Positions 40,867 to 49,892 of a stretch of DNA of 64,000 nt are shown piece after piece (the first letter of the stretch is position 1; each line of letters starts with the position of its first letter). Source of the stretch: Frigoriglobus tundricola. Its GTDB lineage: Bacteria; Planctomycetota; Planctomycetia; Gemmatales; Gemmataceae. The stretch covers positions 7,378,001 to 7,442,000 of the forward strand of contig NZ_CP053452.2 in NCBI RefSeq assembly GCF_013128195.2, given 5' to 3'. The notes beneath the pieces were generated by a model that had not been told where the DNA came from, searched no databases, and was given only the letters and a program-made list of their open reading frames with translations. The position numbers and the translations under genes were made by a program.

Positions 40867-43149
40867 ATGTCCGGACGTGCGGAACGCCTTGATCGCCCGG
40901 GACCGGTGGAGCGGTACGGTTGGGCACTCGTCGTCGCGGCCGGGCTCCTGGCGTATTCGAATTGCTTCGAGGGCCAACTGTACCTGGACGACGACAACGT
41001 CATCACATCGGCTACGAATCAGGTCGCTCAACCGGACGCGCTCGTTCCGCACCCGTTCGCCCAGCGGTGGGTCGGGACCTGGTCGTTCGTGGCCGGGGCG
41101 GCCGCGTTCGGGACGTCGCTGTCCGCCTTCCACGCGGTCAACCTCGGCATCCATCTACTGGCCGGCGTGTTCCTGAGGGCGATCGTTGCCCGCACACTGT
41201 CGCACCCGCGATTCGGCCACCGGTTCGCGGGCCGGGCCGGGTGGCTGGCGACGGCCGTGGCCGTACTCTGGGTCGTTCACCCGCTCACGACCCAAGCGGT
41301 CACGTACCTGTGCCAGCGGTACGAGTCCCAGATGGGCTTGTTCGTATTGATCTCGATCTGGGGCGGGATCCGGGGGGCGGGGGCGACGCACGGGCGGTTC
41401 TGGTGGTACGCGCTCTCCGTTGCGGCGGCCAACGCCGCCACGGCCAGCAAAGAGCCGGCGATCGTTCTTCCGTTCGTCCTCTTCGTCTACGACCGGCTCT
41501 TTCTCGCCGGGTCGTGGCGGGGGGCGGTCCGCAGGTGGCCGCTGTACTTCTGCCTCCTAGCGAGCCAGGCGCCGGGCGTCGTCGCCGCCCTGGAGGCCGT
41601 GTCGCCGCCGCCGGTGCCGGTCGCGGAACGAGTCGATTCGGCCGGTCCCGAGGGGGGCACCCCGTACGTGTCGGCGGGTTTTTCGGCGACGGGTGTGACG
41701 GCGTGGGCGTACCTGCGTTCGCAGCCGGGCGTGATCCTGCACTACCTGCGGCTGTCGGTGGTGCCGTGGCCGCTGGTGCTGGACTACGCGTGGCCGGTGG
41801 CGACGGGGTGGTGGTCGATCTGGCCCCCGGGCGCGGTGGTGGTGGGGCTGTTGGGGGTGACCATGTGGGGCGTGGTGCGGGGCGCCGGGTGGAGCGTGCT
41901 GGGGGTCTGGTTCTTCGGGTTCCTGGCGGTCACGTCCTCGTTCGTACCGATCGCCGACCTGGCGTTCGAGCACCGGATGTACCTTCCGCTGGCGGCGGTG
42001 GTGGCGGGTGTGGTGCTGCTGGGGGACCGGGTGCTCGACGGGATCTCCGCTCGCACCGGGTGGCAGACGGGGCGGATCGGAGCTGTGGCGCTGATCGGCG
42101 CCGCGGGCGCCCTGGCGGCGCTGACCGCGGCCCGGAACGAGGACTACCGGGATCCGGTCCGCATGCACCAGCAGATGCTCGGCGTGGCGCCCGGGAACGG
42201 CCGCGCGTGGTTCAACCTGGGCATCGCGTACCTCCGGCAGGACCGGTCCGAGGAAGCGGTCGGGGCGTTCCGCGAGGGGTTCCAGTATCCGAGCGATGTA
42301 ACCCGTGATGCCCAACGCGTGATCTTCGAGTACTACGGCAAGGCACTCGGGGATACCGGGGACCTGGAGGGCGCGATCGCCGCGTACCGCCAAGCGGTCG
42401 CCCTCGGCTGCGACGCCCCGGTCGTTCACAATCAGTTGGGCCAGTTGCTGACACGGGTCGGGCGGGGTGAAGAGGCCGAGGTCGAGCTGCGGACCGCGGC
42501 CCGGCGGCAGCCCGAGAAGCCCAACGGGTCCCACAACCTGGCGGTGCTGCGGATGCACCAGGGGCGGCCGGCGGAAGCGGTCCCGCTGTTCGAGGCCGCG
42601 CTCCAACGCGACCCGCAGTTCCTCCCGGCGGTGCTCGGGCTGGCGCACGCGCTGTTCGAGTCGGGGCGCCCGGCCGAGGCCCGGCAGGTCTTCGCGGCGG
42701 CCCGGCGGGTCTCCCCGGACTGGGTCCAGAAGCCGATCGATCTCTCCTGGCGGATGTGTACGCACGGGGACCCCCGCGCGCGGTACCCTGCGGAGGGGCT
42801 GCGCCTCGCCCGCTTGGCGGCGGCCGGGATCGGGGACAACGATCCCGGAGTGCTCGACGTCCTCGCGGCGGCGCTGGCCGCGAACGGCCGGTTCGAGGAG
42901 GCGGAGCGCACCGCCGGGCGCGCCGTCCGGATCGCCCGGGCCGGCGGGCACGGCGCTGGCCAACGAAATCGAGCAGCGGCGCGTCCTGTACGGGCACGGA
43001 CAGGCGTACCACGAGCCGGCCCCGGCGTCCCGTTGACGCCCGGACCGGGAGCCGATTCGAATGACGGTCGGGTGCGTCGGTCCTCGAACAACACGGGCGC
43101 TGCGGGGGGCGGAGAATGGGCGGGTGGCTCGATCGGCGGGGCTGGGTGA
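40867..43149 (+). CDS. TMTC-like membrane protein with TPR tail, copy 1 (C terminus frameshifted)
   Basis: The roughly 760-residue protein has a multi-pass N-terminal half in the style of TMTC/PMT-like GT-C proteins: GLLAYSNCFEGQLYLDDDNVIT after helix 1, HAVNLGIHLLAGVFL, HPLTTQAVTYLCQRYESQMGLFVL, SKEPAIVLPFVLFVYDRLFLAGSW, HYLRLSVVPWPLVLDYAW. The C-terminal half has TPRs (from about residue 430). Compared with copy 2, two bases are missing near 42950, so the original end (ALANEIEQRRVLYGHGQAYHEPAPASR, stop 43034-43036) is out of frame. The reading runs on to 43149, 34 bases into copy 2. Probable role: O-mannosylation-type transfer or envelope scaffold. Confidence 0.8.
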   Translation: MSGRAERLDRPGPVERYGWALVVAAGLLAYSNCFEGQLYLDDDNVITSATNQVAQPDALVPHPFAQRWVGTWSFVAGAAAFGTSLSAFHAVNLGIHLLAGVFLRAIVARTLSHPRFGHRFAGRAGWLATAVAVLWVVHPLTTQAVTYLCQRYESQMGLFVLISIWGGIRGAGATHGRFWWYALSVAAANAATASKEPAIVLPFVLFVYDRLFLAGSWRGAVRRWPLYFCLLASQAPGVVAALEAVSPPPVPVAERVDSAGPEGGTPYVSAGFSATGVTAWAYLRSQPGVILHYLRLSVVPWPLVLDYAWPVATGWWSIWPPGAVVVGLLGVTMWGVVRGAGWSVLGVWFFGFLAVTSSFVPIADLAFEHRMYLPLAAVVAGVVLLGDRVLDGISARTGWQTGRIGAVALIGAAGALAALTAARNEDYRDPVRMHQQMLGVAPGNGRAWFNLGIAYLRQDRSEEAVGAFREGFQYPSDVTRDAQRVIFEYYGKALGDTGDLEGAIAAYRQAVALGCDAPVVHNQLGQLLTRVGRGEEAEVELRTAARRQPEKPNGSHNLAVLRMHQGRPAEAVPLFEAALQRDPQFLPAVLGLAHALFESGRPAEARQVFAAARRVSPDWVQKPIDLSWRMCTHGDPRARYPAEGLRLARLAAAGIGDNDPGVLDVLAAALAANGRFEEAERTAGRAVRIARAGGHGAGQRNRAAARPVRARTGVPRAGPGVPLTPGPGADSNDGRVRRSSNNTGAAGGGEWAGGSIGGAG
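41668..42075 (+). repeat. Homogenised block, copy A
   Basis: These 408 bases match 43908-44315 with about a dozen substitutions and no indel (constant offset 2,240). The flanking parts of the two genes are far more diverged. The block encodes GFSATGVTAWAYLRSQPG through the last membrane helices. Confidence 0.9.
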
Positions 43150-45497
43150 TCGTTGCGGCAGCCGGGCTGGTGGCGTATTCCAACTGCTATCAGGGCCAGC
43201 CCTTCCTCGACGACTTCCGCGTCCTCGGTGACCTCGCGACCGAGGCCGTAGGGCCGGACGGGTGGGTCCCGCGCCTGCTGGACCGGCGCTGGCTGGGGAA
43301 CTGGTCGTTCGTGATCGGGTTCGTCGCGTTCGGCGACGGCCTCCCCGCCGTCCACGCGGTGAACGTCGCGGTTCACATTGCGGCCGCGATTGTCCTCTGG
43401 GCCCTGGTCGTCCGGACCCTGCGTCTGCCGGTCTTCCGCGGCCGGTTCGCCGACCGCGCCGGGGGCCTTGCGACCGCCGTGGCAGCGCTCTGGGTGGTCC
43501 ACCCGTTGACCACCTCGGCGGTCACCTACCTGACCCAGCGGTACGAGTCGCAAATGGGTCTGTTCGTCCTGGTCGCGGTGTGGTGCGTCCTCCGCGGGGC
43601 GACCGCGACTTACGGGCGGGTCGGGTGGTACGCGGCGGCTGTGGCGTCCGCCTACGCGGCGTCGGTGACCAAGGAACCCGCGGTCGTCGTCCCCGCGGTG
43701 GTCGCGGTGTACGACCGGCTGTTCCTCGCCGGGTCGTGGCGGGCCGTCGTTCGCGAGCGGTGGCCGGTCCATTTGGGCCTGCTCGCGGTACAGGCGGTCT
43801 TCCTTCCGTTTGCACTCTCGACCCGGGGCGCGCCGCCCCCGACGGCACCGGAGGCGGCCCCGCTCGTTTCGGGCTCGGAGGGGACGGGCCGGCCCGACGC
43901 GGCGGTCGTGTCGGCGGGCTTTTCGGCGACGGGTGTGACGGCGTGGGCGTACCTGCGTTCGCAGCCGGGCGTGATCCTGCACTACCTGCGGTTGTCGGTG
44001 GTGCCGCGGCCGCTGGTGCTGGACTACGCGTGGCCGGTGGCGACGGGGTGGTGGTCGATCTGGCCCCCGGGCGCGGTGGTGGTGGGGCTGTTGGGGGTGA
44101 CCATGTGGGGCGTGGTGCGGGGCGCCGGGTGGAGCGTGCTGGGGGTCTGGTTCTTCGGGTTCCTGGCGGTCACGTCCTCGTTCGTACCGATCATCGACCT
44201 GGCGTTCGAGCACCGGATGTACCTTCCGCTGGCGGCGGTGGTGGCGGGTGTGGTGCTGCTGGGGGATTGGGTGCTCGATGGGGTCGCCGCTTGCACCGGG
44301 TGGCAGACGGGGCGGTTGAAGTTCGGTGCCCTCGGCGCCGCTGTTCTCGTCCTCACGGCGCTGACATATGCCCGCAACGAGGATTACCATGACGAGGTCC
44401 GGATGTATCAGAAGACGCTGGAATCGGTGCCCGATAATGATCGGGTGTGGAACAATTTGGGCGCCGCGCATCTCGTGAGGGGACGGGACAACGAAGCGGC
44501 CGCGGCGTTCCGCGAAGCGACCCGGCACCCGAGTCCACTCAAGCCCTTTATCCACGATCTGGCCTGGCGTAACTGGCTCACAGTTCTGGAACGCAGCCGG
44601 CGCGAGGAGCTGGTTTTGGCGCTGACCGAGTACGTCGCCGAGGAGCCGGAGGACCTGAGCCGCCGCTTCAAGCTGGCGCAAGCTCGGGTCGAATCGCGGG
44701 ACGCCGCCGGGGCAGTCGCGGAATACCGGGCGGCGATCGGGACCGCGACCCGGACCGGCACCCCGCTCCGGGACCCGATGGTGTTCGCGCACTACGCGCA
44801 AGCGCTGAGCGACTCCGGCGACCCCGAGGCGGCGCTCGCGGCGGCCGGCCGCGCCCTGGACCTCCGGCCCGACCTTCCGGCCGCCCACAACCGGATGGGG
44901 CAGGACCTGATGCGGCTCGGCCGGTACGCGGAGGCGGACCCGCACTTCCGGACCGCGGCCGAGCGGCAACCGCAGGCGCCCAACGGTCCCCAGAACCTGG
45001 CGGTACTTCGGATGTACCAGGGCAGACCGGCGGAAGCGGTCCCGATGTTCCGGGAGGCGCTCCGGCGGGACCAGAAATCCGTTCCGGCCCTACTCGGTCT
45101 GGCCCACGCGCTCGGCGAATCGGGTCAGCCGGTCGAGGCCCGTCGGGCGTTCGGGGCGGCGGGGCAACTGGCCCCAGACTGGCCCCAGAAGACGGTCGAA
45201 CGCGCCTGGCGCATGTCCACGCACGGGGACCCCCGCGCGCGGTACGCGGCGGAGGGCCTGCGGCTGGCCCGTCAAGTTGTCGCGGGGGTCGGGGACCGGG
45301 ACCCGGGGGCGCTCGACACGCTAGCGGCGGCGCTGGCCGAGAACGGCCAGTTCGAGGGAGCGGAACGGACCGCACGGCAGGCCGTAGAAATCGCTCGTGC
45401 CGACGGGCACATCGAACTGGCGAACGAAATCGAGGGGCGACGTGCCCTGTACGCGCGCCGGCAGCCGTACCGGCAGCCCGAGCCCGCATCTCGCTGA
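43116..45497 (+). CDS. TMTC-like membrane protein with TPR tail, copy 2
   Basis: The 793-residue paralogue of the preceding gene has the same architecture: YSNCYQGQPFLDDFRVL after helix 1, HAVNVAVHIAAAIVLW, HPLTTSAVTYLTQRYESQMGLFVLV, TKEPAVVVPAVVAVYDRLFLAGSW, HYLRLSVVPRPLVLDYAW. TPRs follow from about residue 430 (VWNNLGAAHLVRGRDNEAAAAFREA, PAAHNRMGQDLMRLGRYAEADPHFRTA, PNGPQNLAVLRMYQGRPAEAVPMFREAL). The first-loop acidic motif is LDDF instead of LDDDN, which may matter for catalysis. Its start is preceded by GGGGGGCGGAGA, inside the frameshifted tail of copy 1, so the genes are probably co-transcribed. Residues about 265-400 are almost identical to copy 1. Confidence 0.83.
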   Translation: MGGWLDRRGWVIVAAAGLVAYSNCYQGQPFLDDFRVLGDLATEAVGPDGWVPRLLDRRWLGNWSFVIGFVAFGDGLPAVHAVNVAVHIAAAIVLWALVVRTLRLPVFRGRFADRAGGLATAVAALWVVHPLTTSAVTYLTQRYESQMGLFVLVAVWCVLRGATATYGRVGWYAAAVASAYAASVTKEPAVVVPAVVAVYDRLFLAGSWRAVVRERWPVHLGLLAVQAVFLPFALSTRGAPPPTAPEAAPLVSGSEGTGRPDAAVVSAGFSATGVTAWAYLRSQPGVILHYLRLSVVPRPLVLDYAWPVATGWWSIWPPGAVVVGLLGVTMWGVVRGAGWSVLGVWFFGFLAVTSSFVPIIDLAFEHRMYLPLAAVVAGVVLLGDWVLDGVAACTGWQTGRLKFGALGAAVLVLTALTYARNEDYHDEVRMYQKTLESVPDNDRVWNNLGAAHLVRGRDNEAAAAFREATRHPSPLKPFIHDLAWRNWLTVLERSRREELVLALTEYVAEEPEDLSRRFKLAQARVESRDAAGAVAEYRAAIGTATRTGTPLRDPMVFAHYAQALSDSGDPEAALAAAGRALDLRPDLPAAHNRMGQDLMRLGRYAEADPHFRTAAERQPQAPNGPQNLAVLRMYQGRPAEAVPMFREALRRDQKSVPALLGLAHALGESGQPVEARRAFGAAGQLAPDWPQKTVERAWRMSTHGDPRARYAAEGLRLARQVVAGVGDRDPGALDTLAAALAENGQFEGAERTARQAVEIARADGHIELANEIEGRRALYARRQPYRQPEPASR
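43908..44315 (+). repeat. Homogenised block, copy B
   Basis: This is the partner of 41668-42075. Differences are scattered single substitutions, several at third codon positions. The block's valine and leucine codons lean to GTG and CTG, unlike the GTC/CTC-leaning flanks in both genes. Confidence 0.9.
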
Positions 45498-48146: not shown

Positions 48147-49892
48147 TCACATTTCGACGAAACCGTCCTCGTTACCGTGTGCCGCGTGGTGCCCGTTCGC
48201 CGACACGCCGACGAGGTCTAGTGACGGGACGGGGCGCGCGGGCTTGACCGCCTTGACCGGCTTGGACGGCTTGGCCGCGGGCCGGGCCACCGGTTTGGCC
48301 GGCCGCGGCGCGGGAGCGGCCGGCCGGGCCGGTTCGTCCGCGGACCCGTCGTCCAGTTTGAACCGGGCGACCAGGCCCCGCAACTGGTCCGCCTGGCCCG
48401 TCAGGCCCTGCGCCGTACCGCTCAGCTCCTCCGTCTGCGCCGCGTTCGCCTGCGTCACCTGGTCCATCTGCGCCACCGCCTTCGACACCTGCTCCACCCC
48501 CGCCGCCTGCTCCTTCGAAGCCGCCGCGATCTCCGTCACGATGTCCGCCGCACGCTTCACCGCCGACACGATCTCCGCCAGCGACTGGCCCGACTGGTTC
48601 ACCAGCTCCGAGCCGCCCTCCACCTTCCGCAGCGAGTCCTGGATCAGACCCTTGATCTCCTTCGCCGACGCCGCCGCGCGCTGCGCCAGCGAACGCACCT
48701 CCGCCGCCACCACCGCGAACCCCCGGCCCTGGTCCCCCGCACGCGCCGCCTCCACCGCCGCGTTCAGCGCCAACAGGTTCGTCTGGAACGCGATCTCGTC
48801 GATCGTCGTGATGATGTCCGCGATCCGCTTGGACGACTGGTTGATCCCACTCATCGCCGTCACCGCCTGCGTCACCACCTTGCCACCCTTCTCCGCCGCG
48901 TCCCGCGCCCCCTCCGCCAGCTGACGCGCCTGCTGCGCGTTGTCCGCGTTCTGCCGCACCGCGCTCGTCATCTCCTCCAGGCTGCTCGCGCACTCCTCCA
49001 GGCTCGACGCCTGCTCCTGGGCCCCGCTGCTGATCTCCTCGCTCGCCGCCGCCAGCTGCGTGCTCGCCTCCGCCACCGCCCCCGACGACGCACGCACCTC
49101 ACGCATCGCCGAGCCCATCTTGTCCAGCGCCGCGTTCAGCGCCTCCGCCATCTTCCGCACCTCGTCGGTGGATTCGACTTCGACGCGCTGGCTCAAATCC
49201 CCCGCGGCCACGCTTTGCAGCACCAGCATCGTCCGGTTGAGTGGGCGCGCGACGAGCCGGGCCGTGAACCAGCCCAAAAAGACGGCCAGTACGGAAACCC
49301 CGATCGTGGCCAGGATGATCGTCGACCGCGTGCCCGCCGCGTTTTCCATCGTCCGGGCGGTGGCCTGTTCGGCGGACGCGGACTTGGCGTTGATAAACAC
49401 GGACAAGCTCGCGTCAACGTTTTTTGTCCAGGTGGCGAGCGCGTCGATCGCGCCAATCGCCTCGTCATTTTTTTGGGCGATGGTCAGCCGCACGGCCTCC
49501 TTGGCGCCCCTCTGGTACTCGGTGAAGTCCCGTTTCACCGCGGCCAGTGCGGCCCGGTCCTCGTCCGTCGAGCTCGTTTCCTCCATCTTTTCCAGGAAGG
49601 TCAGAAAGGCCACGGTTTGTTCATCGACCTGTGCCGCGAACCGCTGCTTATCGGCCGGGGCTTTGACGAGGACCGTGTGCCGGACGACCCGGCCCAGGCG
49701 GGCGAACGCGGTGGCCGCCTCGCGGGCCGCGCCGCGGCTCGCCAGGTCGCGCTCCATTAAGGTCTTAATGGTGTCGCTGGTTCTGGCGGTTCCCGCGGCG
49801 CCCAGGTAGCCGATCCCGGCCATCAAACCGGACGTCAGGAGGAATGCGAGCATCAGCTTCGTTGTGATGCTGCGATTCAGATACCACGACAT
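48147..49892 (-). CDS. Methyl-accepting chemotaxis protein
   Basis: The 581-residue receptor has transmembrane segment 1 ([25 protein letters not shown]), a four-helix-bundle ligand domain (about 32-190), transmembrane segment 2 ([20 protein letters not shown]), HAMP ([44 protein letters not shown]) and a signalling domain. The conserved hairpin tip reads [38 protein letters not shown]. An Ala/Pro/Lys linker and GNEDGFVEM end the chain, without the NWETF-type CheR tether. No che genes are in the window, so it is an orphan receptor. The signalling part has unusually C-heavy codon choice compared with its own N terminus. Confidence 0.93.

What the first reader, a model, noticed from the sequence alone, without database searches (positions are those of the whole stretch)
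41668..44315. Gene conversion between tandem TMTC-like proteins
A 408-base block is nearly identical in the two genes (about a dozen substitutions, no indels, constant offset of 2,240), while the parts before and after have diverged strongly. Codon style changes inside the block in both genes (GTG- and CTG-heavy). Homogenisation of just this membrane segment, or import of the block from a third gene, explains the pattern. The conserved segment may carry a shared catalytic or partner-binding surface.
Basis: seen in the sequence. Interest (0 to 1): 0.62.

Follow-up and report, generated by a model that had tools for sequence, protein, structure and literature searches.

The report
Gene-conversion patch with skewed codon style
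Two neighbouring membrane-protein genes in a planctomycete share a 408-base stretch that was copied from one to the other, and this stretch, like most similar copied stretches found in the genome, carries an unusual one-sided bias for G (or C) at silent sites, which may be a fingerprint of repeated copying.

Summary
Window 41668-42075 and 43908-44315 are 97.3% identical (11 differences, no gaps) inside two tandem homologous genes whose flanks are about 66% identical. Identical residues use the same codon 115/119 times in the block and 183/307 times outside (p~1e-16), so ectopic gene conversion, not protein constraint, explains it. The genome has no third copy and no relative has a close one.

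The codon-style change is also real: G is 0.78 of four-fold sites in the block, 0.49 outside. It is not a family trait. In a 2.55-Mb sample of the genome, 8 gene families have a long near-identical tract in otherwise diverged paralogues. Five of them, and a sixth found separately (chemotaxis receptors), are strongly G- or C-polarised inside the tract; comparable single-copy segments are so polarised in 0.1-2% of cases. Two-fold sites in the tracts are also GC-enriched, as known GC-biased conversion predicts. The G/C polarity I have not found described.

I read the style as a footprint of recurrent, biased, strand-polar conversion. Cause versus consequence is unresolved, and there are counterexamples. 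Import from a third gene is not supported. The proteins are probably GT-C/PMT-like membrane proteins with TPRs; functional claims are inference.

The parts
40867..43149 (+). Gene A: multi-spanning membrane domain plus TPR repeats (ORF open from GTG 40774; ATG at 40867 more likely)
43116..45497 (+). Gene B: tandem paralogue of A, same architecture
41668..42075 (+). Converted block in gene A (136 codons, 97.3% identical to the block in B, G-polarised synonymous sites)
43908..44315 (+). Converted block in gene B
48147..49164 (-). C-terminal half of an MCP gene: second polarised conversion tract in the window (98% and 95% identical to MCP genes at 6.3097 and 6.3077 Mb; N-terminal halves unrelated; G about 0.85 of four-fold sites in the signalling domain)

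Best explanation
Two old tandem paralogues exchanged one segment by intragenomic (ectopic) gene conversion, recently enough that only 11 of 408 bases differ now. Shown: the sharp block of near-identity at synonymous as well as amino-acid sites, with homologous, diverged flanks on both sides. The altered codon style is not a donor signature. It belongs to a class of conversion tracts in this genome whose silent sites have (i) gained GC on both strands and (ii) become polarised to G on one strand. Shown: that association, in this genome. Inferred: that repeated conversion produces it through biased handling of heteroduplex mismatches, adding a strand-polar part to GC-biased conversion. One possible source, from general knowledge and not tested: C:C mismatches are poorly seen by MutS while G:G are seen well, so with a fixed invading strand that strand would drift towards C and its complement towards G.
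For: Block against flank identity and same-codon counts. No third copy. Homologues and the distant paralogue lack the style. Polarity borders fall at or near the identity borders in 4 independent families. Listing without regard to composition: 5 of 8 families with a tract of at least 100 codons and a diverged remainder have |z| >= 6.2, with a sixth in the MCP genes; single-copy segments of like length reach 6 in 0.1-1.8% of cases. Dose response: windows with |z| >= 2.5 rise from about 3% at low to 38% at highest same-codon identity. Two-fold sites: G/(G+A) 0.98 against 0.75 and C/(C+T) 0.94 against 0.83 in G-polarised tracts (p = 1e-11 and 2e-4), 0.90 against 0.65 and 0.98 against 0.85 in C-polarised ones. 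Relatives: 3 of 4 MCP groups with a paralogue at least 93% identical are polarised, against none of about 21 others (p = 0.002, classes set after seeing the data). MutS is encoded.
Against: Not every tract is polarised: the CheA-like 100% tract, the FG-GAP tract, a kinase-like pair and transposases are neutral, and one MCP pair of a relative, 94.6% identical, is neutral. Diverged paralogues (about 75-88% identical) share the polarity, so it is older than the last conversion and might precede conversion. Recent differences between A and B are mostly C/T transitions, not C/G. Only 26% of the genome was sampled, and the families are few.
Confidence: 0.68

Rival explanations
1. Polarity first: coding segments that are G-rich on one strand are recombination-prone (Chi-like sites, R-loops or other G-rich structures), so tandem genes carrying such a segment convert there.
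For: The G-rich strand is the presumed leading strand in all 6 tract families by their majority of copies (dnaA at 3.906 Mb; strand skew). GGTGG-type words are common in the tracts. Diverged paralogues share the polarity.
Against: No word clearly exceeds a codon-shuffled null. Canonical quadruplex motifs are almost absent. A hotspot would let identity extend past the G-rich core, but the borders nearly coincide. The leading-strand trend holds for polarised genes in general (54 against 22).
Confidence: 0.17
2. Import: a foreign segment with another codon style entered one gene by homologous recombination and was then copied to the other.
For: The style differs from the genome average. Some other polarised genes look mobile, such as an integrase-like gene and transposases.
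Against: No donor-like sequence above about 70% identity in the own genome or the phylum sample. Several unrelated families would each need a partial import, some G-polarised and some C-polarised.
Confidence: 0.1
3. Purifying selection on the segment (protein or RNA level) keeps the two copies alike without exchange.
For: The block covers conserved motifs of the family.
Against: Homologues in relatives are only about 36-49% identical to A or B at the protein level in this segment, and synonymous sites are as conserved as amino acids between A and B.
Confidence: 0.02

Closest known systems
Intragenomic gene conversion between paralogues in bacteria (tufA/tufB of Salmonella, PMC5485169; concerted evolution in prokaryotes, PMC6053082)
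   Same: Continuous conversion tract within duplicated genes of one chromosome
   Different: Here the remainder of the genes is about 35% diverged, and the tract bears a distinct silent-site composition
GC-biased gene conversion in bacteria (PMC4450053)
   Same: Recombining sequence has raised GC at third positions; two-fold sites in the tracts do
   Different: Known GC-biased conversion is symmetric between strands; here G and C part company at four-fold sites, to G in some tracts and to C in others
TMTC1-4 O-mannosyltransferases, GT-C/PMT clan (PMC7801869)
   Same: Multi-spanning N-terminal domain followed by TPRs; 6 of 9 aligned family members hit Pfam PMT_2
   Different: No hit to DUF1736 (PF08409); the membrane domains of A and B themselves have no Pfam hit

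Membership tests
Ectopic gene conversion tract | Near-identity, silent sites included, in a bounded block between paralogues with homologous diverged flanks on both sides | tested here: met
Ectopic gene conversion tract | Block groups by genome while flanks group by orthology in related species | not testable with these tools
   No orthologues of the pair in 95 genomes of the family; best homologue about 46% identical
GC-biased gene conversion | Strand-symmetric GC gain at silent sites of recombining sequence | tested here: met
   Two-fold sites pooled over tracts; the A/B block alone has too few such sites
GC-biased gene conversion | No preference between G and C | tested here: not met
   Four-fold G:C 0.77:0.14 in G-polarised and 0.26:0.69 in C-polarised tracts
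TMTC family | DUF1736 (PF08409) segment | tested here: not met
   No match in A, B or relatives
TMTC family | GT-C/PMT membrane domain followed by TPRs | tested here: inconclusive
   TPRs clear; PMT_2 in 6 of 9 aligned members but not in B or A; structure model unusable, pLDDT 34

The most novel reading that the evidence does not exclude
Recurrent ectopic gene conversion in these bacteria has a strand-polar bias between G and C, beyond GC-bias, and leaves long-lived footprints that mark conversion tracts from a single genome sequence.
Probability: 0.35. Interest if true: 0.78.

Novelty: new variant of a known kind. Interest (0 to 1): 0.52.

Why it matters
Codon-style islands inside genes are commonly read as horizontal transfer. 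If repeated conversion between paralogues produces them, that reading needs care, and conversion-prone tracts could be listed from composition alone. A G-versus-C bias would also say which strand invades and which mismatches escape repair, which is testable in ordinary laboratory strains.

Tried and rejected
Third-copy search in the own genome and the phylum: none. Intrinsic codon style of the family: rejected with 19 homologues and the distant paralogue. Chi-like or quadruplex motif: no clear excess over codon-shuffled tracts, canonical quadruplex motifs nearly absent. An overlapping antisense ORF as cause of the composition was considered only from the ORF list and set aside. Genome-contig scans: nothing for B; the MCP scan returned almost no planctomycetes and only one pair over 85%. 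AlphaFold on A+B: pLDDT 34, not used. The first tract listings missed A/B because the identity filter was applied to HSPs that run into the flanks (inferred reason); redone on all pairs. The dose response on averaged z partly reflects the lower variance of averages of unlike pairs; it was repeated on one copy only.

Full report
Observation. The block exists as described: window 41668-42075 and 43908-44315, constant offset 2240, no gaps, 11 differences in 408 bases. It lies in two tandem ORFs on the + strand, A (40774 or more likely 40867 to 43149) and B (43116-45497), which are homologous over their whole length. Outside the block they are 65.6% (upstream) and 65.9% (downstream) identical in DNA and about 55-56% in protein; at identical residues the same codon is used in 76/134 and 107/173 cases, against 115/119 in the block (Fisher p = 8e-17). 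Silent sites are as alike as amino acids and the borders are sharp, which is the signature of sequence exchange and not of protein constraint.

Third copy. A DNA search of the own genome (9.86 Mb, 2 contigs) finds only these two full copies; the third hit is 40 bases. In 392 genomes of the phylum the best matches are about 70% identical over at most about 320 bases. No close orthologue of the pair exists in 95 genomes of the family; the best homologue is about 46% identical in protein. The pair is therefore specific to this lineage as far as the held genomes show, and the direction of copying cannot be decided.

Codon style. In the block G makes 0.78 of four-fold third positions and C 0.15; in the flanks about 0.49 and 0.37-0.39. 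Given the amino acids, this is z = 6.5 against the genome, while flanks are about 1. A change-point fit that ignores identity places the G-rich segment almost on the identity block in both genes. Homologous genes from relatives show no consistent enrichment at this place (19 genes), nor does the distant paralogue at 6.37 Mb, so it is no trait of the protein segment.

The style goes with conversion tracts. The most G-rich region in the first genome sample was the MCP gene in the same window (48147-49892, minus strand), whose C-terminal half is 98% and 95% identical to two MCP genes at 6.31 Mb although the N-terminal parts are unrelated. I then took 2.55 Mb (26%) of the genome and listed paralogue pairs. 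Eight families have a tract of at least 100 codons at 92% identity or more with a homologous remainder below 80%. Five have |z| of 6.2 or more: A/B (+6.2), 308869/315751 (+8.8), 4102610/4105122 (+7.3), 6042295/6314201 (-8.9) and 7355535/7375284 (-6.3); three are neutral. The MCP genes add a sixth (+9.9). Single-copy segments of like length reach |z| of 6 in 0.1% (136 codons) to 1.8% (650 codons) of cases. In 40-codon windows of paralogue pairs the share with |z| of 2.5 or more rises from about 3% to 38% with same-codon identity, counted on one copy only and without one large transposase family. Polarity borders lie at or near the identity borders in four G-polarised families.

Two components. 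Pooled two-fold sites in the tracts are GC-richer in both classes: G/(G+A) 0.98 against 0.75 and C/(C+T) 0.94 against 0.83 in G-polarised tracts, 0.90 against 0.65 and 0.98 against 0.85 in C-polarised ones (p = 1e-11 and 2e-4 for the first two). This fits GC-biased gene conversion, known in bacteria (PMC4450053, read). The split between G and C at four-fold sites is additional; it goes to G in four families and to C in two. By coordinates and the presumed origin (dnaA at 3.906 Mb; skew), the G-rich strand is the leading strand in all six by their majority of copies. This is suggestive only, since polarised genes in general lean that way (54 against 22 at |z| of 4).

Other species. Among MCP genes of congeners, ordinary copies have G about equal to C. 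Three of four MCP groups with a paralogue at least 93% identical are polarised: the own trio; a tandem pair in G002 (C 0.68-0.71); and a G013 gene (G 0.71) with a 93% neighbour. The exception is a G002 tandem pair, 94.6% identical and neutral. None of about 21 others is strongly polarised (Fisher p = 0.002; the classes were set after seeing the data).

Mechanism. Best reading: repeated ectopic conversion with biased resolution of heteroduplex. GC-bias accounts for the two-fold sites. For the G/C split I propose, as inference from general knowledge not tested here, unequal recognition of C:C and G:G mismatches combined with a fixed invading strand; MutS is encoded, and the tuf work shows that mismatch type affects tract shape (PMC5485169). 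The main alternative is that G-rich segments attract recombination; no motif beyond codon polarity was found. Diverged paralogues (75-88% identical) that share the polarity show it is long-lived but do not decide between cause and consequence. The 11 recent A/B differences are mostly C/T, so no ongoing C-to-G process is visible there.

Literature. Searches for gene conversion with codon usage, strand asymmetry, GC skew or Chi sites returned GC-biased conversion and concerted evolution but no report of a G-versus-C polarity of conversion tracts in bacteria. The library holds open-licence papers only, so this is weak evidence of novelty.

Proteins. A and B have an N-terminal multi-spanning domain and C-terminal TPRs. 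The membrane domain of A and B alone has no Pfam hit, but 6 of 9 aligned family members match PMT_2, so the GT-C/PMT clan is likely. The block holds invariant residues of the family, such as the LDYxWP and FEHRMYLPL regions. [quoted passage not shown] this is a resemblance, as DUF1736 itself is not detected.

Limits. One genome, 26% sampled, six polarised families, several choices made after seeing data, simple gene calling by GC pattern, and counterexamples. Gene conversion in A/B is near certain; the general claim is a hypothesis with a strong association in one genome.

Noticed in passing
window 42940-43036: Gene A seems frame-shifted near its 3' end: the B-like C-terminus (ALANEIEQRRVLYGHGQAYHEPAPASR, stop at 43036) lies in the +1 frame while the ORF runs on to 43149. 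Assembly error or real shift unknown.
   Followed up: partly
window 48147-49892 (minus): MCP gene whose C-terminal half is shared at 95-98% with two tandem MCP genes 1.1 Mb away while N-terminal halves are unrelated; strongest G-polarised segment of the first genome sample.
   Followed up: yes
G000:C1 6042295-6046912 and 6314201-6319579 (outside window): Two chemosensory loci share a 651-codon C-polarised tract next to a CheA-like tract that is 100% identical over 266 codons and not polarised.
   Followed up: partly
G013:C2 336-343 kb, G010:C13 146-158 kb, G008:C1 7.203-7.214 Mb: Tandem MCP arrays in G008 and G010 resemble the G-polarised G013 copy more (84-88%) than other MCPs of those genomes do (82% or less); maybe one orthologous, conversion-prone array.
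   Followed up: no
G000:C1 118255-118929 and copies: A transposon-type ORF present in at least four identical copies is G-polarised (0.70) while the ORF just upstream of it is G-poor (0.33).
   Followed up: no
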